Positions 12,598 through 42,876 of a stretch of 64,000 bases of DNA are shown here, piece after piece. Below the pieces are notes generated by a model. The model had not been told where the DNA came from, made no database searches, and saw only the letters and a program-made list of their open reading frames with translations. How positions within the stretch are numbered: the stretch's first letter is position 1; each line of letters opens with the position of its first letter. This DNA comes from Plotosus lineatus (Eukaryota > Chordata > Actinopteri > Siluriformes > Plotosidae): the NCBI GenBank assembly GCA_024760905.1, contig CM045751.1, positions 10,642,501 through 10,706,500 on the forward strand. The letters run 5' to 3'. Position numbers and translations under genes: made by a program.

Positions 12598-12930
12598 GGA
12601 GGCAGTGGTGGCCTGATGGTAAAGGTGCTGGATCACTGATCCTAAGGTTGGGAGAGTAAAGCCCCACTCTCAACGGGTTGTCACTGTCTTCCAGTGCGGC
12701 TAACTGGGTCATGAAAGGCCGGCCATGTCTCTCACTGCCTATTGTGTGAGGTTCATGTAAAAGAACCATTGCTGACTTTCGAAAAAGAGGAGCTGCAAAG
12801 TCATCAGCGTATTTCCGTCCTGCGATGGCCTGGCAAGCTGTCCAGGGTGTCCCTCGCCCAGTGTAGGTCGAGATGGGCACCAGCCTCCCCGCCCTAATTA
12901 GGATGAATCGGTTCAGAAAACGAACGAACG
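12598..12930 (+). mobile_element. SINE-A2, complete, with 12-bp target-site duplication
   Basis: The tRNA-like SINE-A head and core pass into the tail 'gatggcctggcaagctgtcc' ... 'aattaggatgaatcggttca' and end in (GAAC)n. The perfect direct repeat aggtccattatc at 12,586-12,597 and 12,931-12,942 brackets the unit. It therefore moved as one piece with this tail rather than arising from two adjacent fragments. Confidence 0.9.
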
Positions 12931-12942
12931 AGGTCCATTATC

Positions 12943-13410
12943 TAGATCTGTTGTACAATGTTCTAAGATGTAGAGCAGCTGTGTAACAATAGACATACAA
13001 ATTTTGGTCAAGTGTTCCACTTTCAAAAGTACGATGTTCTTACAATGGTCTGCTGACTGGTCTACAATAAACTCATCATATACCCAAGTGTATCATTACT
13101 TTTTCACAGCAGTGCTAGGTTGACCCGTACGGTGGCCGTACATCAACTGAGTATCAGGAATATTGTACAATGATTTATTTATTTTACAACAATCATATCA
13201 CTTCTGTATGCACATCATATACTTTAACTTGCACATTGGAACCATTTTTTCTCGACAGACAGGACATGCTTTGTACGTGAACACAACTACGCAACTTCCG
13301 CTTCCACCTCAACCACACCTAAACCCTTCTGTTGTAGCTGTACTAAAGTCACACAAAACTCCCCAATAATCCCAGGTTTCTGAAAGTAACTTCAGTTAAA
13401 TATGCACTGC
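12943..13410. other. Intergenic DNA, nothing recognised
   Basis: Unique sequence, no coding signal. Confidence 0.35.
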
Positions 13411-13421
13411 TCATACACTTT

Positions 13422-13564
13422 CAGTTCAGTTCATCTTCTGTAACTTCTTAATCCTAATTAGGGTCACCGGGCGAGAGCAGAGCACACCCTGGACAGCTCG
13501 CCAGGCCATTACAGGGCGGAAAAACACGCTGACGGCTTTGCAGCTACTATTGTCAAAAGTCTGT
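13422..13564 (-). mobile_element. 5'-truncated SINE-A2 with 11-bp target-site duplication
   Basis: The minus strand carries only the last part of the SINE-A core (ctgcaaagccgtcagcgtgt) and the tail shared with SINE-C. The repeat tcatacacttt occurs at 13,411-13,421 and 13,565-13,575. 5' truncation with a duplication is the hallmark of LINE-type reverse transcription from the 3' end. Confidence 0.85.
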
Positions 13565-13575
13565 TCATACACTTT

Positions 13576-14295
13576 CTTCGAATCTATTTGAATCAATGAA
13601 GGAATTTGTTTTTTGAGACAATTTTGGCAAAGACACGTTTGCATTGCTTTCATGCCCCCATTATTTCCCCAACAAATGCCAGTGCTCCATTAAACACCAT
13701 ATTCATCTAAAAGCAGACGTGTTCTTTATGAATGTTCTCTGCACTTTCCACAGGTCCTCCTACATCTTAATGTAAGTGGAAAAGCTCCAGATGCAAAACA
13801 AACCTTCCACAGGCTCATTATATGAGTAATGAGGTGCTATACCGCAGCGCTGACTGAACCCGATGCTCTGTTTTCTACAACAACGCGCACACGCGCGCAC
13901 ACACACACACTCTCTCTCATACTCGAGTCTGACACATAGTGCATTATCTGCCAAGCTGTGCTCTGCTTACCCAACTGTCTCCACTCCACAGTGTTGTTTC
14001 TCAAAGCAGCTATGACAGAACAGAGAGCAGATTTCCCACTGAAACCCGACACCGCCATACCTGCCCTGAGCCATCAGGTGCACCGTCACGAGATAGATCT
14101 GGCTTTAGATAAGAAAACAAACTGTGCATTTATTGAAATAATAAGAAACCTCGTCAGTGCGAGCAGCATTCTCGCTTGATGGACTGTAGCGTATAACTAA
14201 ACGCATGAGCAAAAACTACATTCATAAAAATAATTCATTTCATGCAGTCGCAAGCATTTAATATAAAACTACATGAAAGAACTAAGCCATCTGAT
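13576..14295. other. Intergenic DNA, nothing recognised
   Basis: Unique sequence with a short CG/CA-rich microsatellite near 13,885-13,920. Confidence 0.35.
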
Positions 14296-14625
14296 CCCAT
14301 TTTCTGAACTGATTTATCCTTTATCAGGGTTGCAAGGACACTGGACCCCCATCCCAGTTGACCCCAGGAAATGGTGATCTATAATCTAAACAGTTCACTA
14401 GACGATCAAACGGCCAACAGACAACCATTCACACATAGGGGCGGTTTGGAATAGCCAATTAGCCTATTATGAACATCTCTGGACCGTGTGAGGAAAGCCA
14501 CACAAGCACAAGGAGAACATGTAAACTTCACTGAAATACGCCCTCGCCAGTCACAAGACTCAAGACGAGGACCTTCTTGCTGTGAGACAGAAGTACTAAA
14601 CACTACGTCACCGTACCGCCCCAAC
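14296..14625 (-). mobile_element. SINE-C-like element, diverged
   Basis: The minus strand shows a tRNA-like head with 'agcaagaaggtcctcgtctt', a 'gtttacatgttctccttgtg' body and a 'ccctgataaaggataaatca' tail. It is more diverged than the 25,070 copy. Confidence 0.65.
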
Positions 14626-14820
14626 AAAAATAATGATTGCCAAATGAATAAATGTTAAATGATGAGGTCTCTGCACCTGCAAACACCTCATTGGCAGCAA
14701 TGAAGTGTTTTCAGATTTCATAATCACCCCTCAAGTCATTCAGTCCATAGTGTGATACGCTCTTGCAAGTACTGTAATTGTCGAGTGTTACTGGACTTAT
14801 TTAGGAGCCCTATAATTATA

Positions 14821-15281
14821 CAGGGATCCCTCATTTTACATGTTTAATGAGGAGACCTCCCCGCGATCGCCGATTTCCCCAAAGTAGGATTGACCCCTTG
14901 ACTGACGTATACGTACGTACATGTATATGTGTATATAATATCAATAAATACATATTGAATGCTATAAATGCTTATAATAATTAAACATTTAAAAAAAATG
15001 CACATGATGTAAATAAAATACACACATACAGATGCACACCTCACAAAAATTATTATAAGCATTTATAGCATTCAATATGTAAATACTATAGATTTGTTAG
15101 GGGGTTTCGGTTTGTTTGGGGTTTTTTTTTTTTTTTTTACATAATTAGCCTTGTTTTGTGGCATTTTCCTTAACTTTTCCAATATTTTTCTGTATTTCTG
15201 TTTTTTCGATGAATATTTTTGAAAAACCTGCGATGCACTGAAGCCATAGAAACCGAAGCACAAAGTAGCGAGGGATCACGG
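14821..15281. mobile_element. Tig-3 MITE, complete (461 bp)
   Basis: The ends are 'cagggatccctcattttaca' and 'aagtagcgagggatcacgg', both flanked by TA. The internal 'aataaatacatattgaatgc' and 'taattagccttgttttgtgg' blocks define the family. Non-coding. Confidence 0.85.
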
Positions 15282-15424
15282 TATAAGAATATCATTGAAG
15301 AATAATAAAAAAATATTTAGCCACAGGTTGAGAATAATGGTGTGAGAATGCAGAAAAGCTCTACTTTTTTTATTATTAACATTTTAGATTGTGCATGGTT
15401 TGCAGAGAAACATTCATTCCGTCA

Positions 15425-15790
15425 TCCACATAGCCCATATTTCTATCCATTATCTCGGTAATGTATCTATCGGGGTCACAAGGAAAACAGGAACCCTTCC
15501 TTGAAAAGGTCAATGGGATAAGAGGCGGGAAAAACCTTGAACAGATCAACCAATCCATTGGAGAGCTAAAGACACCACACACATCCATAAACACTCATTT
15601 ATGGGCAATTCAGAGGAGCCAGCTGAGCTGAGAAGCATGTCTTTGGACTGTGGAAGGAAACCAAAGTACACAGAGGAAACCTGCATTAATACAGGGAGAA
15701 GACGTAGAGCACAGAATGACCGAAGTTCTCCATCAAGTTCAAGCCAAGACAGCGCGAGAAACCGCACCGGTTGCTCTAAATAAAGGGAGA
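15425..15790 (-). mobile_element. SINE/L2-type repeat relic
   Basis: It contains 'tatctatcggggtcacaagg', 'catgtctttggactgtggaa' and 'ggaaaccaaagtacacagag', the L2-like body and tail common to many teleost SINEs, but diverged. The tRNA head is not clear. Confidence 0.5.
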
Positions 15791-16094
15791 ATGAAGGAGT
15801 GGAAAATGGTAGGTTGAATCCTACACAACGGATCCTTAAAATGGTCATTACTAAAGCGCTGGTATTTCTTTGTACCGATGTTGCATTACAATCTTCTTTT
15901 CATCCTTTTTTCTGGTTTCTTCTGCCTCTTGGATGACCTTTTTCAAGCTTCTCATTTTTCCATTCACCTGGATTGAGTTACCCAGAATGATTCATTCTAG
16001 TGTTCCATCAGCAATGCGACATAACAGGGGGGGAAAAAAAAGCCTCGAGGCTAATGTTTTAGCAGCCAAAATAAATCAAAGAGCTAACCACTGA

Positions 16095-17580
16095 TAAATG
16101 AGTGTATTCTAAAACTCATTAGGTCATGCACAAGATACAGTGGAGGGCAGCTGCAGATTGCATCACCGCAATAACATTTCCGTCTTTAATCACGGGAACC
16201 TGCTTAACCTTTTCCCGCTGACTTTGATGAACATCTTAAAGCTGGACTTTTTTGGGAAAGTCTTCATGTAATGTGATTCAGGTGTAGATTGTTTTCGCGT
16301 GATTGAAAATGATGCCTCACGCCGTCATCGTTTTTCCAGCAGTCAACCTGCACTCTAATTCCTTCAGTTTGGAGCAAGAATAATCCCCAGCGATGCAGGA
16401 AAGCTGGCGTTCCTCTCTCAGCCACAGGGACTTGGCAGGCTTTCAGAATGATGGACAGAAAATGATTAATGAGAAGAACCACATGCAATTAGGCTGAGAT
16501 TCCAGCAAGTCTTTTCCCTTTTTGCGTGCTGAGGTGCTGTCAGAATGGGACGACACTGCATCTGAAGCCCTCAGAGATCTTAGCCTTTTTTGATCGGCAA
16601 CAAGTGGCTGATTCCGAAAGATAAATGTCCAAAAATGGGAGAAAAAAAAGGGCTGAGCCGGAAAGGTAAATTAATAACAGAGTTAAAAAGTAACCCCGCA
16701 CTGAGCATCGCAGTGTGCCGAGTGCCGAATTCTCTCCCTTCATGACTTCATCATTCTTCACCGCTAATGACTCCTAATTGCTAACCCCGCTGTCATACCA
16801 CCCATTCAGATGTTTGCACTTCTGCCTTGAGGAATTAGATTCAATGTCGTCGTCCCCCAACATTAGATAATGTGTTTACAAATATGGTAACAATAGGAAA
16901 TCCTATTCATTTATCCACTTTGAATTGTAAATAACAAAAAGACATGAATCCGAGTGAACGAATGAATGAATGAAAAAGCCTGAGATTTCTTTTGGCCTGC
17001 TTTTCATGGCTTTAAGTGAACCGGGCCCTGTTTAAACTGAGACATCACCCCCGCGCCTTCGAAACACATTTCCACAATAAGAAGCAAATAGCTGAAATCG
17101 ATGGCTAAGACTAATGACGAGGCAAAATTAGACCTTGATGTCATTATCCCGCTGACCATTTTCATCTCCTGCTCATTTTATTATCTCAGCAACACTCGAT
17201 CCGTTTACATTTTAGCCTTTAACTTTTCCCATTATAACATAGTGCCTTGAGGTTTTGCCCTTCCGGCAACTTCACATTTTCACTTAGTGCAATACTTTCA
17301 ATCACAAAGTCCTGCTGCCCTTTTAAAAATCTGGAAAATCTCCAAGCAAGTTAAATTTGAGCAGATAGTGTTTCTAATGCGGTACAAGTTTGCACCATCA
17401 TGTATCTCTCGTTTACTTGATTTGATGAATGATGTATAGCTGTGGTTCTTTAAGTGGCTGGTTATAGTCAGGGGTCAGGGATTTTTACTTTTTTTTTTTT
17501 TTGGTGGTAGAAATTACAAATCATTCGAAGTAAATGGACAGATAAAGCAGATAAATAATATCAACATTAATCTAATGAAA
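16095..17580. other. Repeat-poor block, candidate conserved non-coding DNA
   Basis: About 1.5 kb with none of the repeat families seen elsewhere. It has balanced composition and several homeodomain-like TAAT cores (for example 'ctaatgactcctaattgcta' near 16,765). No protein-coding frame is recognised. Function is only a guess from the absence of repeats; alignment with other fish would decide. Confidence 0.3.
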
Positions 17581-17624
17581 ATTTTAGGGGGGGGGGGGGG
17601 GGACAATTCCTTTGCTCCTATATA

Positions 17625-18334
17625 CAGGGTTTCCTCACTTTCCATGGTTATGGGGACTGAGATCTCCCGTGACTGCTGATTTCCGAGAAGAAGGATCGAC
17701 CCCCCTGACTGACGTTTACATACATGTATGTGTGTATATAATAGCAATGAATACATATTCAATGCTATAAATGCTTAGAATAACAATTAAACATTCAAAA
17801 ATAATGATGTAAATAAAATATAAACACGCACACATACAGCTGCGCGCGCACGCAGATGCGCACCTCACATAAAAATGTAAGTACAGTAGTTTTGTTGGGG
17901 GTTTTGGGTTGTTTTTCAGACCGGGGATTTAGCGCAGTTGGTAGAGCGTCTGCTTTATCCTCTGGAAGGTCGGAGTTCAAATCAGGCCGCATCATAGCAT
18001 AAGACGTTAAACTTTGGGAGTTGTTGCTTCCTGCTTGGCGCTCAGCATCAAAAGGATAGAACAACGCAATAACTGGCGCCGTACAGTGGCAATGGGTGCC
18101 CGGAGCGCCGGGGACAGCGCTTTGAGCATGCTATTCAGTGTGGATGGAGCGCTATATAAATCTAATACAATACAATTTTTTGTTTTTGTTTGTTTGGGGT
18201 TTTTGGTTGTTGTTTTTTCGCATAATTCCCTTAACTTTTTCCCTATTTTTCCTTCTTTTTTTTCATGAATATTTTTGAAAAACCCATGATGCACTGAAGC
18301 CACAGAAACTGAAGCATGTAGTGCAGGATCACTG
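17625..18334. mobile_element. Tig-3 MITE interrupted by SINE-D
   Basis: The left end 'cagggtttcctcactttcca' and the right end 'gtagtgcaggatcactg' are both flanked by TA. Family core blocks are present on both sides. A tRNA-headed SINE lies at 17,921-18,176 in the poly-T region of the MITE. Confidence 0.8.
17921..18176 (+). mobile_element. SINE-D (tRNA-headed) inserted in a Tig-3 MITE
   Basis: The head 'gatttagcgcagttggtaga' is a good tRNA A box and 'ggagttcaaatcaggc' a B box, so the head could be read by RNA polymerase III. The body has 'gttgcttcctgcttggcgct' and the tail has 'gagcgctatataaatctaat'. The second copy is at 34,863-35,045 on the minus strand. It is a SINE rather than a tRNA gene because the match to tRNA stops after the T arm. 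Confidence 0.8.
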
Positions 18335-18532
18335 TACAACTAAAATAAATCAACATATACTTAGGTTTAAATACATACATGCGCATCTACACACACACAT
18401 TCACAAATAAATAAATAAATACATACCCTCTAAGTTTAGCAAGATCAGCTTCAATACAGAAACCCACCAGGAGCTCTGCTTTTAGACAGTGCCAAATTAG
18501 TTTTACTCATTCATTCATTCATTCATTCATTC

Positions 18533-18783
18533 TCTGAAGCGCTTAATCCTAATTAGGGTCACGGGGAGGCCAGCACCCATCTCAGCCAACTCTGGACCGA
18601 GGGGTGATTTAGAACAGCCAATTAACCGACTGTGCATGTTTTTGGATTGTTGGTGGAAACTGGAGCACCCAGAAGAAACCCACACGAACATGGGGAGAAC
18701 TTGCAAACTCCACACAAACACTCGAGCTGGTCATCGAACAGAATACCTTCTTGCTGTGGTAACCACTACGCCAACGTGCCACC
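18533..18783 (-). mobile_element. SINE-C
   Basis: The minus strand ends in the shared tail (cctaattaggattaagcgct) with an ATGAATGA repeat. The body reads 'ggagtttgcaagttctcccc' and the head 'ccacagcaagaaggtattct'. 5' end near 'ggtggcacgttggcgtagtg'. Confidence 0.75.
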
Positions 18784-20175
18784 TGATTATTTTAACTGTG
18801 TATTTATATTAATATAGTGGATAAGAGACCATTCTTATGTTCAGTCCCCGTGGTTTTATTTCTAATTTTGTTGTCCCACCCAAAAGACTATTTCTGTCAC
18901 ATGACTGCCACCAAGAACTGAGGGTGCTTCCTCTGAGCCTGACAGCCGACTGAATTTGTTTCAAAATGCTGCTCTATGATAGTCAGGAGCACTGGAACAC
19001 ACTCACCTACTTAAATGACAGGGAGAAGATTGTATGCAATTCCTTCTCCCATGAGAGTAATGGATAGCTGTGTGCATCACCTGGAGCTTGAACTCAGATG
19101 AGAAGTGAACTTTTTTTTTTTTCATGAAGGCAAGTGTTGACCTGAATGGAATGAATGAGCAGATTATTCCTTCAGCGGAGGTTTTCTTTCCTGATGGCAC
19201 GGATATAAAATTGGGGTCTCAAGTAGTGAAAGAGTGATTCAGTGAGCATGAGGAATCATTTTCACACGTGAACTGGCAACACAGAGTCCTGGCCATAACC
19301 CTATTGAAAGTCTTTGTGATGTGATGGAGAAGACTTTATGGGAAAGGTTCAAATTTCATGTCATCAATTCAAGATCGCAGTGAAAATTAACTCGACACTG
19401 GATGAAAGTAAGTGTCGTGTTGTTGTTTATGTTTGTCAAAATGATGCCATAGCATTTTAAACACTGTATTCAAGGCTAAATTTGGTTAAAAAATGTGTAC
19501 AAGTGCATTTGCACAAATGACACATTAAAAAATTATTAAAGTAAATACATAAAACATGTTCATCTCTCCCCCATAATGCAGCTTGTTTGCGGAAGATTTT
19601 CGCCTGCTGGAAGCGGAAAAATACATTCGGAATCATATGGAAGGACACGGAAGATGACGTAACGACTGAGGAATATTAGAGTATGATGACATTTTTGCTT
19701 CCGCGAGTCTGCCGCGCTCCAATGAAATGGGGGTATAATGCAGTATTTGCACTATGACCCAATAAAACTAATAGTTTTAGACTACAGTACTGTACTTTAT
19801 TTTACTACATTACATTACACACCATAAGTCCCTGAGCGACCACAAACAGCCAACCAACTCCTTGAGATAGGTAAGGAACAGCAGTGTACTCTGTATATCC
19901 GTGTGCTCATCGGGGATGAAATTAGCCTGACACACAATCAGCGTAGCAAAGGAGAGTTATTGATCGTTCAGCTGTACAATCAGCATGTGATAGTATTAAC
20001 ATCACATTAATTTTGTTTGTCTGCTCAATGCCAGATGAAAGCCGAACCAGGAATTTTATAAAGACATCAACAAAACCTTCACAACTGGTCTCATTCAAAC
20101 TTCAGAATGCATTTGGGTTTAAGAAATAGAAATTGAACCCCAACTTTGTGTGTTTAATGTGTCTTTAATTATACA
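18784..20175. other. Intergenic DNA, nothing recognised
   Basis: Mostly unique sequence with AT-rich stretches. No gene model can be supported. Confidence 0.35.
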
Positions 20176-21494
20176 TTTGTGGTCCGAGATAAGTGGGGAT
20201 GGCAGGGATCTGTACTGCCTATTTGTCAGGATTGCAGGATGAGGAGGTGGAGCTTATCCGGGCCAAAAGGTGGGGTACACCACAAACTACCCCACAGTAT
20301 ATTGCAGAGCTAAATAAAATCCATGTATTTACCTCCAGGTGTTCTGAAAGCTGTTTTTGAACAGAAATAAAATTTGCACTCAAGTTGTCGACCTGACTTT
20401 TTTTCCCACCTGATTTAGTCATATTCAATTCCAACCTGTCACACAATTTGCTTCCCTATCACATACAACCACTGTTGACCAGGAAGAGACGTAAACATGC
20501 ATGTACCCTATTTGTGACACGTGATGCTTCCACCTGTAGCTTTACGAACTGCTGCGTATGCGGCCTAACACTGCGAGAGGGAAAGTTCTCTCCGCCCATT
20601 TGTTTGAACGAGCTCACAGATGCTCAGGATTGGTTAGTGATCGCTATAACGGGGAAGGGAGCACATGCCATCCATCACTTCCATGAGAACTCGACCAATT
20701 GGCTGCCATGGACTCCCAGGTCGTGGATGGCTTGCAGCATCAATCTGTATTTAAACCTGAGATTTCCAAATTGATGGTCATACACCTTGTTGATATTCCA
20801 CTCAGCAACACAAGGCTGGAAACCTTCTAATTAAATGTGCTTAATGATTTATGGATAATATGTCATTTCATACTTCCATGAAAAAAAAAAAAATCAAATA
20901 TTTACATTCTGATGAAAATCAAGATGTTCCATACAGAGCAGTTTAAAAAAAAAAAAAAAAAAAAGATATTCTTCCACTCTCGAATGATTTGGTCTCTTTT
21001 TTCGGATCACCAGGTTCATGAGGTTTCGCCTCAATCAATCTGCCTCCTGAGTTTCAGCTGTAAACAAGATGGTAAATAATTCGGCTGATTGCATGTGAAA
21101 TCATTTGTTCCAGAAGCAACAATTCACGCTCAGTCACGTTTTTTTTCACATCAGATCTGACGTTTATGAATGTGTCAATTACTCTGCAATGAATCCAGAT
21201 GACCGTGAATGATTCACATTCTTCAGCTCATAAATCATTCATCCCACAGCCATGAGTGAAGTGTTTACAGTACGTTTTCTCCAAGTCATCACTCTTAATC
21301 GTACAAAACAACCCTAACTGTTTACTTTGGTACCATCGAGTTTATTTCTCCTCACCCCCAACCCCCCCCAAATGATGAGCTGTAAAAAAGGTCAAACTTC
21401 AAGCATGATTACGATTTAGGGTCATGTCACTGAGAAATGTGGTTGAAGGTTTCTTCAGAATCAATATAAGAAAGCACAGCAACTTATGTGTTGT
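20176..21494. other. Intergenic DNA, with a possible SINE tail relic at its left end
   Basis: 20,220-20,300 loosely resembles a SINE/L2 tail (gcttatccgggccaaaaggt). The open frame around 20,448-20,774 shows no recognised domain. Poly(A) runs lie at 20,880 and 20,944. Confidence 0.3.
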
Positions 21495-21776
21495 GTGGGG
21501 CAGTGATGGCCTGGTACTAAAAGGTGCTGGATCGCTGATCCTAAGGCTGGGGGTTCGAGTCCCACGCTCCACAAGGTTGTCACTGCCCCCCCCCCCCCCA
21601 TTGCTGACTTTTATCAAGAGTAGCTGCATACCCCTCAGTGGGTTTCTGCCCCTTGCTAAAGGGTTGTGTCAGGAAGGGCATCTGACATAAAAACCTATGC
21701 CAAATCGAATATGCGAATCATAGATTCACTGTGGCGACCCCTGAGAATAATGGAGCGGCCAAAAGGAAAAGATGAA
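21495..21776 (+). mobile_element. SINE-A1 with internal deletion and 15-bp target-site duplication
   Basis: Complete head (ggggcagtgatggcctggta) and B box, a deleted part of the core, then the RTE-type tail (catctgacataaaaacctat, cactgtggcgacccctgag, ccaaaaggaaaagatg). The flanks caacttatgtgttgt (21,480-21,494) and caacttatgagttgt (21,777-21,791) differ at one base, so this is an independent insertion. Confidence 0.88.
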
Positions 21777-21856
21777 CAACTTATGAGTTGTAACAGAGCA
21801 ACACAAGAAGATTATATGTTCATTTATTATCCATACCACTCACCCTGCAGTTAAGG

Positions 21857-25069: not shown

Positions 25070-25366
25070 GGCAGCACCGTGGTGTAGTGGTTGCACGTCC
25101 GCCTCACAGCAGGAAGGCCTGGGTTCAATTCCGAGCTTGGGCATTTCTGTGTGGAGTTTTCATGTTCCCCCTGTGCTTGCGTGTGTTTCCTTCCGGAGTT
25201 CAAAAACATGCACAGTAGGCTGCCAGGCTGTTGCAAGTCACCCCTAAGTGTGAGTGTGAATAGTTGTGTCAGTGTTGGCCCTGCGATGGGCTGGTGAACT
25301 ATCCAGAGCCTCCCCGTGACCCTAATCAGAAGTAAGCGGTTCAGAAAATAAATGAATGAATGAGAT
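25070..25366 (+). mobile_element. SINE-C, best complete copy
   Basis: tRNA-like head 'cagcaccgtggtgtagtggt' with B box 'gggttcaattcc', a body with 'tgtggagttttcatgttccc', and the tail 'cctgcgatgggctggtgaac' ... 'aagtaagcggttcag' ending in (AATG)n. This is the common fish SINE layout with an L2-like tail. The tail is also carried by SINE-A2. Confidence 0.85.
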
Positions 25367-25839
25367 CCGGGTTTAATGTGTCCATTTTAATATGATATCA
25401 TTTCATCGCTCATCCTAAATCAGATGAAATTGGCTTCACACATAACACTGACAGATACGCACTATAGATATGGATGCTGTTGTTGCCATAGAAACAATGT
25501 AGAAGTATATTGGTATGGCAGATGCTCTACATTATATATGTACGTGTTAATGTGTTAAAATCCCACGAGGAATTCTTCAGCATGGATGGATTGATGGTTG
25601 TTTCAAACCGTGATAAGCACCATTTTTTTTTTGGTCTAACTATGAGAGAAAAATTAAAGCCTGATGAAAGAATAATTGTTTACATGTTAACAGGAAGTGA
25701 CAGGGTTCATTTAGAGATACTTCAGAATATTCAACGTACTATAACTATAAACAGCTAAAATGTTTAAAACATGTTTAAGTTTCAATATCTTGTAATCATT
25801 GATGAATTGCGAAGGGATGTGTTACTGGATGATGTCACA
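25367..25839. other. Intergenic DNA, nothing recognised
   Basis: Unique AT-rich sequence left of the LINE. The open frame at 25,510-25,758 has no recognised domain. Confidence 0.35.
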
Positions 25840-25853
25840 AAGTCACATGTTTA

Positions 25854-28008
25854 AGGCAGCTGTGGGGGGGGGGGGGGGGGGGGCACAAGCCAGTTTCTCT
25901 ACCTCACGCCGGTCCCAAGCCCGAATAACTGCAGAGAGTTGCATCAGGAAGGGCAGCCGGTGTAAAACAAAGAATTTCATACAAGATCGGTCGAGGCCCG
26001 GGTTAACAACGGCCGCCATCAGTGCTGTTAACCAACAGGGTGCTGGTGGAAATTGGACTACTGTTGGTCGAAGAAAGAGAGGCGGGAGGCGTGTCCGTAG
26101 GCAGAGAGAGAAGAGGAAAAGCATGAGCCTAGGACTGAAAGTAAGGACTTTGAATGTTGGAACTATGACAGGAAAAAGCTAGAGAGCTGGCTGGTTTGTT
26201 CAGGAGACCTTTTGTGTGTACAAAGGAAGAGGTTAGCTTAGAAGAAGTGGGACATTGAGAGGACCGAAGAGCGTAAACAGGAGTACAGGGAGACACAGCG
26301 TAAGGTGAAGGTAGCGGCATCAAAGGCCAAATAGAGGGCGTATGATGACTTGTATGCTCGGTTGGAAAGTAAAGAGGGAGAAAATGATTTATACAGGTTG
26401 GCACAGCAGATAAATAGAGATGGGAAGGACGTGGAGCAAGTTAGAGTGATAAAGGACAGAGTGGGAAATGTATTGACTGATGACAGAAGTGTGCTGGGAA
26501 GATGGAAAGAGTACTTTGAAGAGCTGATGAATGAGGAAAATGAGAGAGGAAAGAAAGAAAAAAAAAAAAAAGAGTCGAAGAGGTGATCGTTGAGGACCAG
26601 GAAGTAGCAAAGATTAGTAAGGGTGAAGTGAGGAGGGCATTGAAGAGGATGAAGAATGGAAAGGCAGTTGGCCTTGATGACATACCGGTGGAGGTATGGA
26701 AGTGTTTAGGAGAGGTAGCAGTAGATTTTCTGACAAGAATATTCAACAACTACAGAGGGATAAAGTTGATGAGCCATACGATGAAGTTATGGGAATGAAT
26801 AGTGGAAGCTAGACTGAGGGCAGAGGTCAGCATTTGTGAACAACAGTTTGGTTTCATGCCAAGAAAGAGCACCACAGATTGACACAACCTTGAGGATGTT
26901 AATAGAGAAGTACAGAGAAGGTCAGAAGGAGCTGCATTGTGCCTTTGTGGCTCTGGAGAAAGCATATGACATGGTGCCGAGAGAGGAACTGTGGTATTGC
27001 ATGAGGAAGTCTGGAGTGGCAGAGAAGTATGTTAGTGTGGTGCAGGACATGTACGAGAGATGTAAGACGGTGATAAGGTGTGCTGTCGGTGTGACAGAAG
27101 AGTTAAAGATGGTGGTAAGACTGCATCAAGGGTCAGCTCGGAGCCCCTTCTTGTTTGCTATGGTGATGGACAGGCTGACAGACGAGGTTAGACAAGATTC
27201 CCCATGGACTTTGATGTTTGCAGATGACATTGTGATCTGTAGTGAGAGCAGAGAACAAGTGCAGGAAAATCTAGAGAAGTGGAGGTATGCCCTGGAAAGG
27301 AGGGGAATGAAGGTTAGCCTCAGTAAGACAGAATACATGTGTATGAATGACAAGGACCTCAGAGGAACGGTGAGGTTACACGGAGCAGAGTTAAGGAAGG
27401 TGGAGGATTTTAAGTACTTAGGCTCAACAATCCAGAGCAATGGAGAGTGTGGAAAAGAGGTGAAGAAGCGTGTGCAGGCAGGTTGGAATGGTTGGAGAAA
27501 AGTGTCCAGTGTGATAGGAGGGTATCGGCAAGAATGAAAGGAAAAGTGTACAAGACGGTGTTGAGGCCAGCGATGTTGTATGGTTTAGAAACAGTGGCCC
27601 TAGGGAAAAGACAGGAGGCAGAGCTGGAGGTAGCAGAGATGAAAATGTTGAGGTTCTCTTTGGGAGTAACGAGGATGGATAGGATCAGGAATGAGCACAT
27701 CAGAGGGACAGCACATGTAAGAGGTTTTGGAGACAAAGTCAGAGAGGCTAAATTGAGATGGTTTGGACATGTACAGAGGAGGGATAGTGAGTATATTGGT
27801 AGTAGAATGCTGAGGTTGGAACTACCAGGCAGAAGGCCTAGAGGAAGACCAAAGAGACGATTCATGGATGTGGTGAAAGAGGACATGAAGGTCGTTGGTG
27901 TAAGAGAAGAAGATGCAAAGGATAGGGTGAGATGGAGGCAGATGATTCGCTGTGGCGACCCCTGAAGGGAGAAGCCAAAAGGAAAAGAAGAAAGAAGTAG
28001 TAGTAATG
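25854..28008 (+). mobile_element. RTE-type LINE, both ends present, internally deleted
   Basis: A 2.15-kb unit bracketed by the perfect 14-bp repeat aagtcacatgttta (25,840-25,853 and 28,009-28,022). The 5' UTR has a run of about 19 G, 'cccaagcccgaataactgca' and 'gcatcaggaagggcagccgg'. Coding remnants follow: the start of the apurinic-type endonuclease (RTLNVGTMTGKS, 26,143-26,181), a large endonuclease deletion, then reverse transcriptase and the C-terminal region. The 3' end is 'cgctgtggcgacccctgaag' plus a short A/G-rich tail. Typical RTE elements are ~3.2 kb, so about 1 kb is missing. Frameshifts and the deletion rule out activity in cis. RTE placement rests on the endonuclease start, RT motifs, short 3' UTR and C-terminal sequence. 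Confidence 0.9.
26143..27965 (+). pseudogene. Broken RTE ORF: endonuclease start, reverse transcriptase, C-terminal domain
   Basis: The endonuclease start at 26,143 breaks after 'TMTGKS'. The reading resumes at ~26,350 with the linker 'ENDLYRLAQQINRDGKDVEQ'. RT begins with 'RRALKRMKNGKAVGLDDIPV' (26,628 on). 'DLEKAYD'-type motif A appears as 'VALEKAYDMVPREELW' (26,946 on), and the active-site FADD lies at 27,217-27,228. A frameshift near 27,500 moves to the frame holding 'RWFGHVQRRDSEYIGSRMLR' and the terminal 'RQMIRCGDP' at 27,965. The motif A aspartate is replaced by Glu-flanked sequence, and at least three frame changes are needed, so no functional polymerase is encoded. Confidence 0.88.
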
Positions 28009-28022
28009 AAGTCACATGTTTA

Positions 28023-29894: not shown

Positions 29895-29995
29895 GAAGTC
29901 CACAAAACAGAGTAAACACAAAGATCACAGAGACAATGTCTTAACACAAGGGGAACACGCTATATAACATTATTTTTTTATATATATATATCTTC

Positions 29996-30235
29996 TTTTA
30001 CTTTTGGCTGCTCCCTTCAGGGGTCACCACAGCAAATCATCCGCCTCCACCTCACCCTGTCCTCCGCATCTTCTTTTCTGACTCCAACGACCTTCATGTC
30101 TTCCTTCACCACATCCATAAATCTCTTCTTTGGTCTTCCTCGTGGCCTTCTGCCTGGTAGTTCCAACCTCAGCATCCTACTGCCAATATACTCACTATCC
30201 CTCCTCTGTACATGTCCAAACCATCTCAATCTAAT
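29996..30235 (-). mobile_element. 5'-truncated RTE LINE copy
   Basis: The minus strand encodes the last ~70 residues of the RTE ORF ('MRWFGHVQRRDSEYIGSRML' ... 'RRMICCGDP' stop at 30,017) and the 3' UTR, ending in the (TA)n tract. It matches the full element at 25,854 closely. Confidence 0.88.
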
Positions 30236-32163: not shown

Positions 32164-33437
32164 CTAGTCCTTCTAAAAAAATTAGCATATTGTGATAAAG
32201 CTCATTCTTTTCTGTAAAGTACTGATAAAAATTCAACTTTTATATATTTTAGATTCATTGCACACCAACTGAAATATTTCAGGCCTTTTATTGTTTTAAT
32301 GCTGATGATTTTGGCATACAGCTCATGAAAACCAAAAATCCCTATCTCAAAAAATTAGCATATTTCATCCGACCAATAAAGAAAAAGTGTTTTTAATACA
32401 AAACAATGTCAACCTTCAAATAATTATGTTCAGTTATGCACTCAATACTTGGTCGGGAATCCTTTTGCAGAAATGACTGCTTCAATGCAGCGTGGCATGG
32501 AGGCGATCACCCTGTGTCACTGCTGAGGTGTTATGGAGGCCCAGGATGCTTCGATAGCGGCATTAAGCTCATCCACAGTGTTGGGTCTGGTGTCTCTCAA
32601 CTTTCACTTCACAATATCCCACAGATTCTCTATGGGGTTCAGGTCAGGAGAGTTGGCAGGCCAATTGAGCACAGTAATACCATGGTCAGTAAACCATTTA
32701 GCAGTGGTTTTGGCACTGTGAGCAGGTGCCGGGTCGTGCTGAGAAATGAAATCTTCATCTCCATAAAGCTTTTCAGCAGATGGAAGCATGAAGTGCTCCA
32801 AAATCTCCTGATAGTTAGCTGCATTGACCCTGCCCTTGATAAAACACAGTGGACCAACACCAGCAGCAGACATGGCACCCCAGACCATCACTGACTGTGG
32901 GGACTTGACACTGGACTTCAGGCATTTTGGCATTTCCTTCTCCCCAGTCTTCCGCCAGACTCTGGCACCTTGATTTCCGAACGACATGCAAAATTTGCTT
33001 TCATCCGAAAAAAGTACTTTAGACCACCGAGCAACAGTCCAGTGCTGCTTCTCTGTAGCCCAGGTCAGGCGCTTCTGCCGCTGTTTCTGGTTCAAAAGTG
33101 GCTTGACTTGGGGAATGCGGCACCTGTAGCCCAGTCCACTGCTTCCACAGGTCCCCCAAGGTCTGGAATCGGCCCTTCTCCACAATCGTCCTCAGGGTCC
33201 GGTCACCTCTTCTGGTTGTGCAGCGTTTTCTGCCACACTTTTTCCTTCCCACAGACGTCCCACTGAGGTGCCTTGATACAGCACTCTGGGAACAGCCTAT
33301 TCGCTCAGAGATTTCTTTCTGTGTCTTACCCTCTTGCTTGAGGGTGTCAATGATGGCCTTCTGGACAGCAGTCAGGTCGGCAGTCTTAGCCATGATTGCG
33401 GTTTTGAGTAATGAACCAGGCTGTGAGTTTTTAAAAG
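32164..33437 (-). mobile_element. Tc1-like element 1, 5' end lost
   Basis: The left terminus 'ctagtccttctaaaaaaatt' follows TA. Its inner 'aaaaattagcatatttcatc' block recurs at 32,348. The transposase lies on the minus strand. At ~33,437 the element passes straight into the opposite-facing element 2 without a terminal repeat. Confidence 0.85.
32442..33393 (-). pseudogene. Tc1 transposase pseudogene (DD34E), element 1
   Basis: Starts at the ATG 33,393 with '[20 protein letters not shown]' (paired-like HTH) and '[13 protein letters not shown]'. A frameshift near 33,130-33,180 separates this from the catalytic part. First Asp in 'LFSDESKF', second Asp in 'FISQHDPAPAH', Glu in 'NPIENLWDIVK'. A nonsense codon follows that motif at ~32,604, and the C-terminus continues to 'GFPTKY'-like sequence at 32,442. 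All catalytic residues are visible, but the frameshift and stop make it inactive. Confidence 0.88.
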
Positions 33438-34401
33438 AGATAAAAATTGTACAACTGCACAAAGCTGGGATGAGTCAAACTGCAATTGGAAAACAACTTT
33501 GTGAGAAAAGATCAACAGTTGGAAACATTATTCGAAAATGGAAAAAAGTATAACATCACTGACAACATCCCTAGGAGTGGCGCTCCATGCAAGATCTTAC
33601 CTCGTGGGGTTCAAAGGATCCTGAGAACAGTGACTAATCAGCCAAGAACTCCACAACAGGAACTGGTCAATGATTTGAAGACGGAAGTAACCACCGTCAC
33701 AAAGATGACAAGAACTAACACACTACGTCGCTATGAGATGAAATCCTGCATTGCCCGAAAGGTTCCCCTACTAAACAAAAAACATGTAAAGGTCCGTCTA
33801 AAATACGCGGAAGACCATCTGGACGATCCAGCGGAGGATTGGGAGAATGTGATGTGGTCAGATGAGACCAAAATTGAACTTTTTGGTTTAAACAGCACTC
33901 GCCGTGTTTGGAGGAAGAACAATGCTGAGTTGCATCCCAAGAACAACATACCTACTGTGAAGCATGGGGGTGGACAGGAAGACTGCACCGAGACTGCACC
34001 GTATCAATGGCAACATGAATGGGGCCATGTATTGTGACATTTTGGGTAAACACCTCCTTCCCTCGGTCAGAGCATTAAAGATGAAATATGACTGGGTCTT
34101 CCAGCATGATAACGATCCAAAGCACACAGCCAAGAAAACCAAGGAGTGGCTCCGTAAAAAGCATATCAAGGTTCTGGAGTGGCCTCGCCAATCTCCAGAC
34201 CTCAACCCAATCGAAAACCTGTGGAGGGAGTTAAAACTTCGAGTTGCCAAGCGACAGCCCTCAAACATCACAGCTCTAGAGAAGATGTGTGCAGAGGAGT
34301 GGGCCACAATACCAACTAAAGTGTGTGTAGACCTGGTCAAGAACTACAGGAACCATTTGACCTCTGTCATTGCCAACCAAGGCTTCATTACAAAGTATTA
34401 A
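33438..34401 (+). pseudogene. Tc1 transposase pseudogene (DD34E), element 2
   Basis: Reads from '[20 protein letters not shown]' (first HTH, start codon lost) through '[15 protein letters not shown]' and the GRPR-like linker 'NIPRSGAPCKI'. Catalytic residues: Asp in 'VMWSDETKIELF', Asp in '[13 protein letters not shown]', Glu in '[11 protein letters not shown]'. Around 33,965-34,010 a deletion and frameshift remove the segment between 'VKHGGG' and '[12 protein letters not shown]'. Ends at the stop 34,399-34,401. Inactive by truncation and frameshift. Confidence 0.88.
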
Positions 34402-35237: not shown

Positions 35238-35530
35238 CTGGGGCCTATTTCTGTGCATGTTCTTCTCATGCTTGTGTCTGTTTCCTCCAAGTATTCCAGT
35301 TTCTTTCCACAAAGAAAAAAGGCATGCACATAAAGTCAACTGAATATAATCATGACGGCGAGTGTGAATGGCTCAGCATTTGGGACTGCACAAACTAATG
35401 TAATCGCAGTGCTGGTCTCAAGGTCCCTGTGTAGTGTTACATCAGGAAGGGCATTTGGAGTAAAACCTTTGCCAAATCAAATATGCGGCTCATATGATCC
35501 AATGTGTTGACCCGAAAAGAATAGGACCAC
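35238..35530 (+). mobile_element. SINE-C body joined to an RTE-type tail
   Basis: The left part has the SINE-C body ('ctgtgcatgttcttctcatg', 'tccagtttctttccacaaag'). The right part (35,432-35,525) has 'acatcaggaagggcatttgg' and 'tgccaaatcaaatatgcggc', the RTE-type tail otherwise seen on SINE-A1. No flanking repeat was found, so two neighbouring insertions remain possible. Confidence 0.55.
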
Positions 35531-37889: not shown

Positions 37890-37923
<34 letters not shown>

Positions 37924-38355: not shown

Positions 38356-38454
38356 CTGCAAACCTCGTACTTTAGGCAATTTAAAACTTGTACAATAGCA
38401 TCTACATTTATTATCGTTTGCTCATTTGAAGTGACAAAATTCATCATCATCATC

Positions 38455-38840
38455 GTCGTCAACATCTTGGTCCAGGGTTGGGTTGCACATGCAGCATTCT
38501 GAGGAATGAGGTGGAGGGGTTTGTGTGTCCGAATGATCCCGGGAGATGTTGTCTGGGATATTATGCCCCTGATACAGTAACCGAAGGCAAGGTGAAGGTC
38601 CACGCAAAGCACAGTTCAGAAGAAACTTATGAGCAGAATTATTGCAAGGACTCCACTTTCCTCCACTGAACGCAGATTACCGGGGTCCCACCTGAAGCCA
38701 GGCTTGGGGGAGGGGCTCTGAAGCAAGTGATGGTGGTTGCACTTCTGCCCACAGAGCCTGTCCGGGCCCAGCCTGAAGGACCTGCCCATGGACCCACCAC
38801 CTGTGGGAGGGTTATATGGTTTGGGTGCAACATGAGCTGA
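38455..38840 (+). mobile_element. Probable non-LTR element 5' region
   Basis: GC-richer sequence with 'atgttgtctgggatattatg', 'taccggggtcccacctgaag', 'agcctgtccgggcccagcct' and 'cccatggacccaccacctgt'. It resembles the conserved 5' leader of a fish non-LTR family, possibly the same clade as the relic at 23,673. Recognition is from memory of the motif order only. Confidence 0.4.
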
Positions 38841-38904
38841 ATGTCAGCATAGAAAATTACATTTCATATTAAAAACACAATTTTTATCCTGAATAATTTG
38901 TTGA

Positions 38905-39141
38905 CTCGACCCAGTGCAGATAACTGGGTTATCAAAAGGCCGGCCAGTATGAGGTTCATGTAAAAGAACCATTGCTGACTTTCAACAAGAGTAGCTGAAT
39001 GGCGGTCAGCATGTTTCTGCCCTGTGATGGCCTGGCAAACTTTCCCGGGTGTACTCTGCCCTCGCCCGGAGTCGGCTGGGATGGGCGCGAGCCTCCCCGT
39101 GACCCTAGAATTAAGCGGTTACAGAAAATGAATGAATGAAT
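38905..39141 (+). mobile_element. SINE-A2, head missing
   Basis: Begins in the core ('cagtgcagataactgggtta'), continues 'ggcggtcagcatgtttctgc' and passes into 'gatggcctggcaaactttcc' and the (GAAT)n tail. Same junction as in the copies at 1,006, 12,598 and 42,322. Confidence 0.8.
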
Positions 39142-39288
39142 TTGTGACTCAAAATTGAAGTGTAATGGACAACAGCCAAGTTGTCATGGCATTCACCAAA
39201 TAGCCACACCCATCCATGAGCAAAACTCATCAGGGTCATGGGGGAAGCTGAAGTCAGTCTCAGCTAATTTTGGGTGAGCGGCCAGGTA

Positions 39289-39757
39289 CAGGAATCCCTC
39301 ACTTTCCGCTGTTAATTGGGACCGAGATACCCCCACGATAACCGAAATCCGCGAAGTAGGATCAACCCCTCCCCCAACCCCCCAACTGACATATACGTAC
39401 ATGTATATGTGTATATAATATCAATAAACACATATTCAATGCTATAAATACTTATAATAACAAACATTCAAAAATAATGCATAAGATGTAAATAAAATAT
39501 AAATACACACAAAGACGCACGCACGTAGATGCACACCTCACAAAAATATAGTTTTGATGGGAGATTTTGTGTTTGCTTAGGGTTTTTTTTTTTTTTTCAT
39601 AATTGGCCTTGTTTCTGTGGCATTTTCCTAAACCTTTTCCCCTTTTCTTCCTTAATTTCCTTATTTTTTTATTTCGATGAATATTTTAAATAAATAAATA
39701 AAAACGTGACGCACTGAAGCCACATAAATTGAAGCGTGAAGTAGCGAGGGATCCCTG
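39289..39757. mobile_element. Tig-3 MITE, complete (469 bp)
   Basis: Ends 'caggaatccctcactttccg' and 'aagtagcgagggatccctg' with TA flanks, and all family core blocks in order. Confidence 0.88.
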
Positions 39758-41094
39758 TATATCCTGAAAGTGGTCACCAATCTACTGCAGACACAACAAG
39801 ACCTTCACCCAAACTGTATACGGGCAAGACAGAGCAGCTGGAGGATGAAACGTGCATATTTACATTGTGAGGCAACACCACAGAGCCACAGTTACCATCA
39901 TATCTCTGCAGGAGATGGTCCAGTTATGAAGGGTTATCATTCAAATGCATGTACTGTATGCTACCGGTGTTGATTTATTTACTTGCTCGCACATTGATTT
40001 TGATATCTCAGGTCAGCATTGGCCAATAATGTGTTGTGATATATGGGGTCAGTGATGCAACCCAGCCAATCCTAGTTTATGTCACTACCAGGTCGGAACA
40101 GCAATGAGAGAGGCAGCATGTCTCTGAGCAGGCCTTGGGCCTTCACACTCTTCTACATTTTGGAAAAGGGCATGGAGTGATGTTGCCGGGAGGAACCGCT
40201 AATGTTATATGTGATCATTTTAAATAGCTAACAGCACTAACCACACCACCGGTGCCACCTTGTGGCACATTGATTTTGATATCTCCAAATGTTTTCAAAG
40301 GTCTCAACGAAAAATATCGTCATGGCTATGATGGAAAGAAAAAAGACAAGAACAAGTCTGTTTACTGAAGATCACATTGTATTCACAATAATCTTGTAGC
40401 AGGGGAACGCAGCACGGTGCCAAGACATTTATTACGTCCGAGATGGAAAAAAATCAATTTAAAAATACTTGTGCTGTATCATTTATAAATGATTTAACTG
40501 TTGAAGAAAGCTGGATAAGGTGAACATTGATTTGGTGCATCAAGATTCTCGATGCAAAGATGCAACAAAACCTTTAAAATGCCCTTTTACATCGACTTAA
40601 ATCATTTTTATAAGCAATGTATTTCATTAAACAGTTTAAATGCGGAATGTATCATCAGGGAATCTCACCTGAGCTGCACGCCTTGATCCTCCATGCAGGC
40701 TCAGAGATGTTCATGGTGATCTTCGACATCAGGTCAGGCTTGGAGTCTGGTTCTCCTAATATTGTTATTCAGTACAATTGGCCACAACGGACAGGTGGAA
40801 TTGTGGCAGGTCACCCTGACCTAAAAACAAGACCCTGTCATTTCCTCTTCGTACTGTGAAGCTTAACATCAAGGTTCAAACAACTTAAGATTGTTAACTT
40901 TGACAGGGATTGGGAAAAAAAACAAGCACAGAATCATATGTTTGAGTTCTGCCTCACTGAAAACTGTTAATGTTGACAGAAGCATACAAAAGTAACAGCC
41001 TGCACTCCTTTACACAGACTTCTGACCCTGATCACATAGAACAAACAAAGAGACTGATCTTTATAATTTGGCCAACCGCTTCAACCAATTAGTG
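39758..41094. other. Intergenic DNA, nothing recognised except a SINE tail start at the right edge
   Basis: Unique sequence with two short copies of 'cattgattttgatatctc' (39,993 and 40,269). Open frames here carry no recognised domain. 41,070-41,094 is the start of a SINE tail that continues at 41,662. Confidence 0.3.
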
Positions 41095-41661
41095 CAGTGG
41101 GTCTCAATTAATTTCTGTGGCGCCCCCTCTCGGAAGTAAAAAAAAAAAAAAACATTTCACGCCTCCTCACCGCCTCGCGAGCAACTATAAATATTATTTG
41201 TCGATAAAATTGTTATTAGTACACCTCTGCACGACATTGTATCTTTATTAACATTAAAAAACAAAAAAAACCAAAGAAATATAGCTCAACTTAAAATGAA
41301 GAAAAACCTCATTAACATTGTGTTTTAATCTGTCATAGAAAATATTTAAACTTCACCAATGTGACTGAAATTTAAACAATACGTCCTTATTTAAACTCAT
41401 TTAACTTACTTATGTCTTAATATCTCCATCTCTCTCCACCTTTCTCTTCATTCCTGTCAGAAAATTTTCCGTGTTGTTTCTTGAGGGGTTGTGTTGACTG
41501 CACTTCATATCGTTTGCTCGTGCGAAAACCGCTACACCATACCGCAACAATGAGAGCGCTACTGCCAACTACAGGAGTGGAGGTGCAATTACGTTTACTG
41601 TAATTCTCGTTACACTATTCCACAAAAGCATGTTCCCCGCCCCACTATTTGAGAAGCACTG
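41095..41661. mobile_element. hAT-1 non-autonomous element inserted in a SINE tail
   Basis: Ends 'cagtgggtctcaattaattt' and 'actatttgagaagcactg', with 8-bp flanks aattagtg (41,087-41,094) and aattaggg (41,662-41,669). Orientation is opposite to the copy at 21,857. The interior 'gttgtttcttgaggggttgt' is the reverse complement of that copy. Confidence 0.85.
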
Positions 41662-41757
41662 AATTAGGGTCACAGGGAGACTGGTGTCTATCTCATCTGA
41701 CACTGGGAGAAGGAAGGGTACACCCTGGAGAGCTCGCCAGACCATCGCAGGGCAAAA
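41662..41757 (-). mobile_element. SINE tail (A2/C type), remainder after the hAT insertion
   Basis: The minus strand reads 'gatggtctggcgagctctcc' and 'cctgtgaccctaatt', continuing into 'ggttgaagcggttggc' at 41,070-41,094 beyond the hAT element. Followed by A-rich and (CA)n sequence. Confidence 0.65.
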
Positions 41758-41778
41758 AAACAAACAAACAAACAAAAA

Positions 41779-41815
<37 letters not shown>

Positions 41816-41848
41816 CCCATTCATACCCAGTGTCAATTTGGAATGTGC

Positions 41849-41945
41849 AGGGCAGTGGTGGTATAGGGTGCTGGATTGCTGATCCTAAGGTTGGGGGTTC
41901 GAGTCCCACTCTCCATCCACAAGGTGGTCACTGTTTTTATCAAGG
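41849..41945 (+). mobile_element. SINE-A head fragment
   Basis: 'ggcagtggtggtatagggtg' and 'gggttcgagtcccactctcc', ending after 'aaggtggtcactg'. Confidence 0.7.
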
Positions 41946-42246
41946 TGATTTCATTTAGTGCTTACCATAACCTGCACGCTTCTGGAATAAATGAAGCACC
42001 AAAGCATGAGTATTATAAAGCATGTTCACAGGCTTACTGGACCGAAAATTGAATTTTCACACAATTATACCATTGACCACTAATTCCACCGATCCACGCC
42101 TGGCTTTAGTGCTGCCAACTTTACTTTGTTTAACTAGTTGTTGGTGGAAAATAAAATGTGAACATCTTAGCACGAGTACGTAACCGCAAAACTCTTATTT
42201 GAATTACATTCGTTAAAAACTGTCGCACAGTGGTGTAGTGGTTAAC

Positions 42247-42876
42247 ACAGGCGTTTCAGACTCGTGTCACAAAGGGCTGTGTGGCTGCAAGTTTTTGTTT
42301 CAACCAAGCAGCAGCACACTTCAGTTCAGTTCATTTACTGTAACTGCTTCATCTGAATTAGGGTCGCGGGGAGGCTGGTGCCCATCCCAGCCAACTCAGG
42401 GCAAGGGCAGAGTACACCCTGGACAGCTCACCAGGCCATCGCAGGGCGGAAACACGCCGACGGCTTTGCAGCCTACACTTTACGAGAGTCAGCAATGGTT
42501 CTTTTACATGCCTCACACCATAGACAGTGAGAAACATGGCCCGCCTTTGATAACCCAGTTAGCTGCACTGGGAGGACAGTGACAAACTCGTGGAGAGTGG
42601 GACTCGAACCCCGAATCTTTGGATCAGCGATCCAGCGCCCTATACCACTAGACCACCACTGCCCCAGCAGCACACTTGATGTTTCTCATTTAAACGAATG
42701 AGTTGAATCTTCAGACAGTTGATTGGTCAATTTGTGTGCTCTGTACAGAGACTGACCAATCAACTGCTGGCGACTCAGATCAGTTGTTTAAATGAGCAAA
42801 GTCGGGTGTGCTGCTGTTTGGTTGAAACAAAAACCTGCAGCCACATGGCCCTTTGTGGCATGAATTCGTCACCTGT
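42247..42876. mobile_element. hAT-2 fold-back MITE, carrying a SINE-A2
   Basis: The left arm 42,247-42,321 and right arm 42,750-42,876 are long inverted repeats: both hold 'gtttttgtttcaaccaa' and 'cacaaagggc' motifs on opposite strands. Flanks tggttaac (42,239-42,246) and gggttaac (42,877-42,884) differ at one of eight bases, fitting hAT. A SINE sits at 42,322-42,665 near the left end. Confidence 0.8.
42322..42665 (-). mobile_element. SINE-A2, complete, with 12-bp target-site duplication
   Basis: The minus strand reads head 'ggggcagtggtggtctagtg', core and SINE-C-type tail 'ctaattcagatgaagcagtt', ending 'aatgaactgaactg'. The perfect repeat agcagcacactt flanks it (42,310-42,321 and 42,666-42,677). 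The target is the arm of the hAT-2 element. Confidence 0.92.

What the first reader, a model, noticed from the sequence alone, without database searches (positions are those of the whole stretch)
12598..42665. One SINE family (SINE-A) carries two unrelated 3' tails, each proven mobile by target-site duplications
Copies with the same tRNA-like head and core switch at 'ctgcaaagcc/gtcagcgtgtttctgccc' into either an RTE-type tail (A1: 2,462; 8,018; 21,495; 51,734; 62,765) or a tail shared with the unrelated SINE-C (A2: 1,006; 12,598; 13,422; 38,905; 42,322). A2 copies at 12,598, 13,422 and 42,322 have perfect 11-12-bp flanking repeats. A1 copies at 21,495 and 51,734 have 15- and 10-bp repeats. Both forms therefore moved as units. 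It looks like a SINE that changed its LINE partner by template switching, keeping its core. Tail exchange between SINEs is known in principle; this pair of forms in one genome may be undescribed.
Basis: partly seen in the sequence, partly recalled or inferred. Interest (0 to 1): 0.75.

Follow-up and report, generated by a model that had tools for sequence, protein, structure and literature searches.

The report
One SINE family, two LINE-derived tails
A short "jumping gene" in what looks like a fish genome exists in two versions that share the same front half but end in tails borrowed from two different helper elements; this kind of tail swapping is already known, but here front halves and tails may have been reshuffled more than once.

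Summary
Five copies of a tRNA-headed SINE (A1) end in an RTE-type tail and five (A2) in a tail shared with SINE-C. The A2 junction is at the same point in 5 of 5 copies. Target-site duplications flank 4 of 5 A2 and 2 of 5 A1 copies (a third weakly); none was found at the core/tail boundary. Both composites thus inserted as units. Two additions. The A1 tail is itself composite: a piece of the RTE 5' region plus the RTE 3' end, about 2 kb apart in the window's LINE copy, as in ruminant Bov-tA. And tails do not sort with cores: two core haplotypes (six of nine copies) each carry both tails, so one clean switch fits poorly, though not decisively (parametric test 0 of 150; AU p 0.129 or 0.045; much homoplasy). 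Partner exchange by template switching is documented, so this is a new member of a known kind. Genome-wide copies, ages and Repbase/Dfam are unchecked: the genome search did not complete (14 calls). The L2 label of the A2 tail and the fish origin rest on recall.

The parts
51734..52081 (+). SINE-A1 copy (head, core, RTE-derived tail); TSD GGATAAATGT at 51,724-51,733 and 52,090-52,099
21495..21776 (+). SINE-A1 copy with an internal core deletion at a C-run; 15-bp TSD with 1 mismatch at 21,480-21,494 and 21,777-21,791
62765..63123 (+). SINE-A1 copy, core haplotype X; no clear TSD; tRNA match in head below Rfam's gathering score (18.7 bits)
8006..8345 (-). SINE-A1 copy; weak 8-bp repeat ATACAGTA at its ends
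2471..2798 (-). SINE-A1 copy in an AT-rich site; no clear TSD; head 2,724-2,797 just passes Rfam's tRNA gathering score
57680..57804 (-). 5'-truncated SINE-A1 copy (end of core plus tail); no clear TSD
12598..12930 (+). SINE-A2 copy (head, core, L2-like tail); 12-bp TSD AGGTCCATTATC at 12,586-12,597 and 12,931-12,942
42322..42664 (-). SINE-A2 copy, core haplotype X; 13-bp TSD at 42,309-42,321 and 42,665-42,677; tRNA match in head 23.4 bits (below gathering)
13423..13560 (-). 5'-truncated SINE-A2 copy that still spans the core/tail junction; 16-bp TSD (1 mismatch) at 13,407-13,422 and 13,561-13,576
38908..39138 (+). 5'-truncated SINE-A2 copy, core haplotype Y; 12-13-bp TSD with 1-nt indel at 38,895-38,907 and 39,139-39,150
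1013..1266 (+). 5'-truncated SINE-A2 copy, core haplotype Y; no TSD found
25796..28010 (+). Broken RTE-like LINE copy: 5'-region segment matching the A1 tail at 25,935-25,968, reverse transcriptase at 26,818-27,534, 3' end matching the A1 tail at 27,939-27,991
43854..44140 (+). RTE-like 3' end, 5'-truncated, matching the end of the A1 tail
29986..30233 (-). RTE-like 3' end, 5'-truncated
35430..35520 (+). Fragment matching the RTE 5' segment and the A1 tail without a SINE-A core; possibly a free-standing internally deleted RTE (inference)
54250..54636 (-). SINE-C copy whose 3' part matches the A2 tail (92 columns, 78%)
50950..51215 (+). SINE-C copy with L2-like tail
25076..25360 (+). SINE-C copy with partly deleted L2-like tail
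18475..18785 (-). SINE-C copy with the end of the L2-like tail

Best explanation
SINE-A is a tRNA-headed SINE whose transcript reaches a LINE's integration machinery through its 3' tail, and which exists in one genome with two exchangeable tails. A1 ends in an internally deleted RTE (5' piece plus 3' end), so it would be mobilised by an RTE LINE. A2 ends in the tail that SINE-C also carries, most likely from an L2-type LINE, so it would use that LINE. Shown: shared head and core, one A2 junction, TSDs enclosing both composites, RTE identity of both parts of the A1 tail. Inferred: template switching during target-primed reverse transcription made the composites (core ends ..GCCC, the SINE-C tail reads GGCCCTGCGATGG, so the switch can sit in a 4-nt overlap). 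Further, at about 0.45: more than one exchange, or one exchange followed by recombination between A1 and A2 RNAs, because core haplotypes X and Y each occur with both tails.
For: One junction in 5 of 5 A2 copies; TSDs at 4 of 5 A2 and 2 of 5 A1 copies; no repeat at the junction in the 10 copies tested; the A1 tail (57,680 copy tested) matches both ends of the window's RTE, 0 of 1,000 mononucleotide shuffles as good for each, and the 51,734 copy matches both at E 2e-5 and 2e-8; RVT_1 in that LINE, E 2.9e-24; the A2 tail matches SINE-C copies at E 2e-14, 7e-14 and 3.6e-11. For repeated exchange: A2_42322 is sister to A1_62765 (81/84, and 89/86 on six copies), the tail label needs 3 changes on the tree, as low in 328 of 500 label shuffles; on transversions plus one indel the A2|A1 split costs 14 steps against 11, and 45 of 126 possible 4|5 splits do as well or better; on all substitutions 65 against 59, 90 of 126; likelihood loss 11.8 against at most 7.5 in 150 simulations.
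Against: AU test: p 0.129 on nine copies, 0.045 on six; no branch is starred. Column 150 follows the tail in 7 of 8 copies, and columns 92 and 219 join A2_12598 with A2_42322. Other columns join odd pairs (A1_62765 with A2_12598 at 77, 101, 204, 221; A1_8018 with A2_12598 at 55, 93), and 33 characters need 59 steps, so homoplasy is high. Three of nine copies (A1_2462, A1_8018, A2_12598) are mixed between X and Y; X with an A2 tail rests on one copy. No LINE with the A2 tail was recognised in the window, so its L2 origin is recalled. TSDs show that composites inserted, not that two different LINE proteins inserted them.
Confidence: 0.72

Rival explanations
1. A sub-variant of the above: a single tail switch with no later exchange. 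A2 arose once from A1 (or the reverse), and the shared core haplotypes are parallel mutation and alignment noise in old, diverged copies.
For: One junction; AU test on nine copies does not reject it (p 0.129); columns 92, 150 and 219 lean towards the tail and homoplasy is high.
Against: A1_62765 and A2_42322 share columns 13, 45 and 123 (two transversions); A1_51734, A1_21495, A2_1006 and A2_38905 share columns 186 and 201 (both transversions); parametric test 0 of 150.
Confidence: 0.4
2. Not exclusive of the above: the A2 tail came from SINE-C RNA by SINE-to-SINE template switching, not directly from an L2 LINE.
For: SINE-C in the same window carries the same tail from GCCCTGCGATGG on.
Against: A parent LINE would give the same tail, and none was recognised here, so the sources cannot be told apart. 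The three longest A2/SINE-C tail matches are only 78-79% identical; a tail without SINE-C head at 41,659-41,761 scores better (E 7.5e-20).
Confidence: 0.35
3. The composites are nested insertions: a second element landed in SINE-A copies.
For: SINE-A copies at 8,018 and 62,765 themselves seem to lie inside another repeat (read by eye).
Against: One junction in 5 of 5 A2 copies; no repeat at the junction in 10 copies tested, and outer TSDs enclose core and tail together in six.
Confidence: 0.02

Closest known systems
Marsupial CORE-SINEs WSINE1 and WALLSI2 (PMC3403934; passages and one section read)
   Same: Same tRNA head and core with different ends; WALLSI2 is described as a recombinant whose RTE-derived tail is shared with WALLSI1 and WALLSI3.
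   Different: Different core and host; WSINE1 ends in poly(A) and is expected to use L1.
MIR/Ther-1 (L2 tail), MIR3/Ther-2 (L3 tail), Mar-1 (RTE tail) (PMC3747384, Table 1 seen in passages)
   Same: One core superfamily served by L2-, L3- and RTE-type tails.
   Different: CORE domain; its presence in SINE-A was not tested.
Bov-tA and Bov-A2 of ruminants (PMC3747384, Table 1 seen in passages)
   Same: tRNA head joined to a Bov-B derivative; Bov-A2 is listed with the Bov-B 5' end and tail, as in the A1 tail.
   Different: No L2-tailed counterpart was named in the passages seen.
Salmonid SINEs and V-SINEs with a common 5' half and different 3' tails (cited in PMC2653535, passages read; the V-SINE paper was not held)
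   Same: Fish SINEs; template switching already proposed for the exchange.
   Different: Sequences not compared here.
HaSE1/HaSE2 of Helicoverpa (PMC3272025; abstract and passages read)
   Same: Same head and central domain with two unrelated 3' regions in one genome, one from an RTE.
   Different: The other 3' region comes from a mariner element, not a LINE.

Membership tests
tRNA-derived SINE | tRNA-like 5' head with Pol III promoter boxes | tested here: met
   Rfam tRNA hit at 2,724-2,797, 29.6 bits against a gathering score of 29; sub-threshold full-length matches at 62,768-62,841 (18.7 bits) and 42,589-42,662 (23.4 bits). ARAGORN found no tRNA gene in the window. Promoter boxes read by eye only.
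tRNA-derived SINE | Insertion by target-primed reverse transcription (TSDs, 5' truncation) | tested here: met
   TSDs at 6 of the 10 listed copies; three A2 copies and the extra A1 copy 5'-truncated.
RTE-mobilised SINE (A1) | 3' end shared with an RTE LINE of the same genome | tested here: met
   Last 27-53 nt match the window's LINE 3' end. The clade name RTE for that LINE is recalled; the tool result is RVT_1.
RTE-mobilised SINE (A1) | Actually mobilised by RTE protein | not testable with these tools
   Needs a retrotransposition assay.
L2-mobilised SINE (A2) | 3' end shared with an L2-clade LINE of the same genome | tested here: inconclusive
   Tail shared with SINE-C. Nine of the 38 ORFs of 120 aa or more were sent to Pfam; the only RVT_1 is the RTE-like LINE. 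L2 label recalled.
CORE-SINE, V-SINE, Deu-SINE superfamilies | Conserved superfamily core domain | not tested
   No reference core sequences at hand.

The most novel reading that the evidence does not exclude
SINE-A is a recombining modular family: cores and two LINE tails reassort repeatedly through template switching at a short homologous stretch, so tail identity is a mobile character rather than a lineage marker, letting the SINE change LINE partner again and again in one genome.
Probability: 0.4. Interest if true: 0.5.

Novelty: new member of a known kind. Interest (0 to 1): 0.33.

Why it matters
If cores and tails reassort repeatedly, SINEs escape dependence on one LINE, and SINE subfamily trees based on tails mislead. 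Head, core, both tails and an RTE relative all lie within one 64-kb window, so the genome would be a natural test of how often a SINE changes partner.

Tried and rejected
Genome-wide copies: the same genome search was sent 14 times and never answered, so copy number, age by tail and junction constancy beyond the window are untested. Copies elsewhere: one exact 23-base core pattern in viral contigs gave 0; antisense ORFs through the A2 and A1 junctions gave 10 and 12 word-sharing candidates, none at E 0.001. The LINE's last ORF found no PDB relative. Paper text: six core strings in 0 papers; six tail-like strings in 3 papers, listing only, none about SINEs by title, one on Neotropical fish microsatellites. 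Coilia nasus SINE and Squam3 were read in passages as possible precedents; no change between LINE clades was seen in those passages. Tail folding was little better than shuffles (z -0.06 to -1.61 for four strings), so no structural claim is made. Nested insertion rejected. In one search the core limits were not trimmed equally and one search replaced them. One search dropped the first 15 columns by a coding slip; one search repeats it with the intended block left out and gives the same transversion result (14 against 11). The haplotype hypothesis was formed after seeing the alignment, so its tests are post hoc, and the parametric test is known (recalled) to be liberal. Copies 57,689 (A1) and 13,422 (A2) and the two head-only pieces were left out of trees and step counts because too little core remains.
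Full report
What is there. The window (41% GC) carries Tc1/mariner-like transposases (DDE_3), a broken RTE-like LINE (RVT_1 at 26,818-27,534, E 2.9e-24) and many repeats. It reads like a teleost genome; that is my inference, no tool named the organism.

Anatomy. The head matches the tRNA covariance model (29.6 bits at 2,724-2,797, gathering score 29; 18.7 and 23.4 bits in the 62,765 and 42,322 copies, below it); ARAGORN finds no tRNA gene. A core of about 130 bp follows. In the alignment of eleven copies A1 and A2 run together to TTTCTGCCC and then part: A1 goes on CTTGCTAAAGGGTTGTGTCAGGAAGGGCATC..., A2 goes on TGYGATGGCCTGGCAAG.... The A2 junction is at the same point in 5 of 5 copies, with small indels beside it in two.

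Mobility. Flank comparison gives TSDs for A2 at 12,598, 13,422, 38,905 and 42,322 and for A1 at 21,495 and 51,734: p 0.0007-0.0008 each against 6,000 unpaired random flanks, 0 of 110 mispaired flanks as good, but only 0.021 each against random intervals, where tandem repeats inflate the control. A1 at 8,018 has a weak repeat (p 0.025 and 0.052). Four others (1,006; 2,462; 62,765; 57,689) show none. At the core/tail boundary none of the 10 copies tested shows a repeat with the 3' flank (lowest p 0.25). Core and tail were thus inserted together. The 13,422 copy is cut inside the core yet spans the junction between its TSDs.

The A1 tail. Its last 50 or so bases match the 3' end of the window's LINE (27,939-27,991; also 44,088-44,128), which runs from the end of the ORF through a very short 3' UTR. 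The upstream part matches a segment near the 5' end of the same LINE copy (25,935-25,968). For the 57,680 copy each match was better than all 1,000 mononucleotide shuffles; the SINE core against the LINE, as a contrast, was matched by 11 of 200 shuffles. A 21-base motif with 3 mismatches gave 7 hits, 0.00 expected: six in A1 copies, from one of which it was taken, and one in the LINE. The two parts lie about 2 kb apart in the LINE, so the tail is an internally deleted RTE. The fragment at 35,430-35,520 matches the tail and the RTE 5' segment (0 of 1,000 each) without a SINE-A core; its match to the RTE 3' end alone is not significant (440 of 1,000).

The A2 tail. It aligns with SINE-C tails from GCCCTGCGATGG to the 3' repeats (E 2e-14, 7e-14, 3.6e-11). 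I recall this tail as L2-type in fish; no L2 LINE was recognised in the window, but only 9 of 38 long ORFs were sent to Pfam. Core ..CTGCCC and SINE-C ..GGCCCTG share GCCC at the junction, as template switching with a short overlap would leave; four bases are weak evidence.

Do tails follow cores? On nine copies the tree is mostly unresolved, but A2_42322 joins A1_62765 (81/84; 89/86 on six copies), and the tail label needs 3 changes, as low in 328 of 500 label shuffles. Holding A2 together costs 11.9 log units, AU p 0.129; on six copies 8.4 units, p 0.045. In 150 data sets simulated on the constrained tree the loss never reached the observed 11.8 (maximum 7.5). With transversions plus one indel the free tree needs 11 steps and the A2|A1 split 14, matched or beaten by 45 of 126 possible 4|5 splits (the split itself counted); with all substitutions 59 and 65, 90 of 126. 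Linked sites define haplotype X (A1_62765, A2_42322) and Y (A1_51734, A1_21495, A2_1006, A2_38905); A1_2462, A1_8018 and A2_12598 are mixed. Against this, columns 92, 150 and 219 lean towards the tail, and several columns join other pairs, such as A1_62765 with A2_12598 at four sites. I put repeated exchange, or one exchange followed by A1-A2 recombination, at about 0.45; the tests are post hoc and the copies few.

What is known. [quoted passage not shown] PMC3747384 (passages) lists CORE-SINEs with L2, L3 and RTE tails and Bov-tA/Bov-A2. PMC3403934 (passages and one section) describes WALLSI2 as a recombinant of a CORE-SINE with an RTE-derived tail. PMC3272025 (abstract and passages) reports two SINEs with one 5' part and two 3' parts. 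The principle is therefore established. No title or abstract listed by paper searches points to this particular pair; they cover open papers only, not Repbase or Dfam.

Verdict. A real pair of composite SINEs; new member of a known kind; modest interest, higher if reassortment is confirmed genome-wide.

Noticed in passing
10,300-11,680: Long degenerate tandem array of CATATCTCTCTCTCTCCCC-like units, about 1.3 kb.
   Followed up: no
55,388-55,819: 20-bp tandem array (TGTGCGTGTCYGTGTGACCC) overlapping an ORF on the minus strand (55,422-55,892) whose start reads like a SCAMP protein by eye; Pfam gave no hit.
   Followed up: partly
32,604-34,401: Two Tc1/mariner-like transposase remnants (DDE_3) side by side on opposite strands.
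   Followed up: partly
13,423-13,560 and 42,322-42,664: These two A2 copies end in TGAAC repeats, whereas 38,905 and three of four SINE-C copies end in GAATGA-like repeats, hinting at A2 subfamilies.
   Followed up: partly
7,908-8,014; 14,818-15,031; 17,622-17,834; 39,284-39,511; 48,928-49,080; 62,638-62,760: Another dispersed repeat into which the SINE-A1 copies at 8,018 and 62,765 appear, by eye, to have inserted.
   Followed up: no
28,859: The string CTGCAAAGCC occurs here outside the listed copies; not examined.
   Followed up: no
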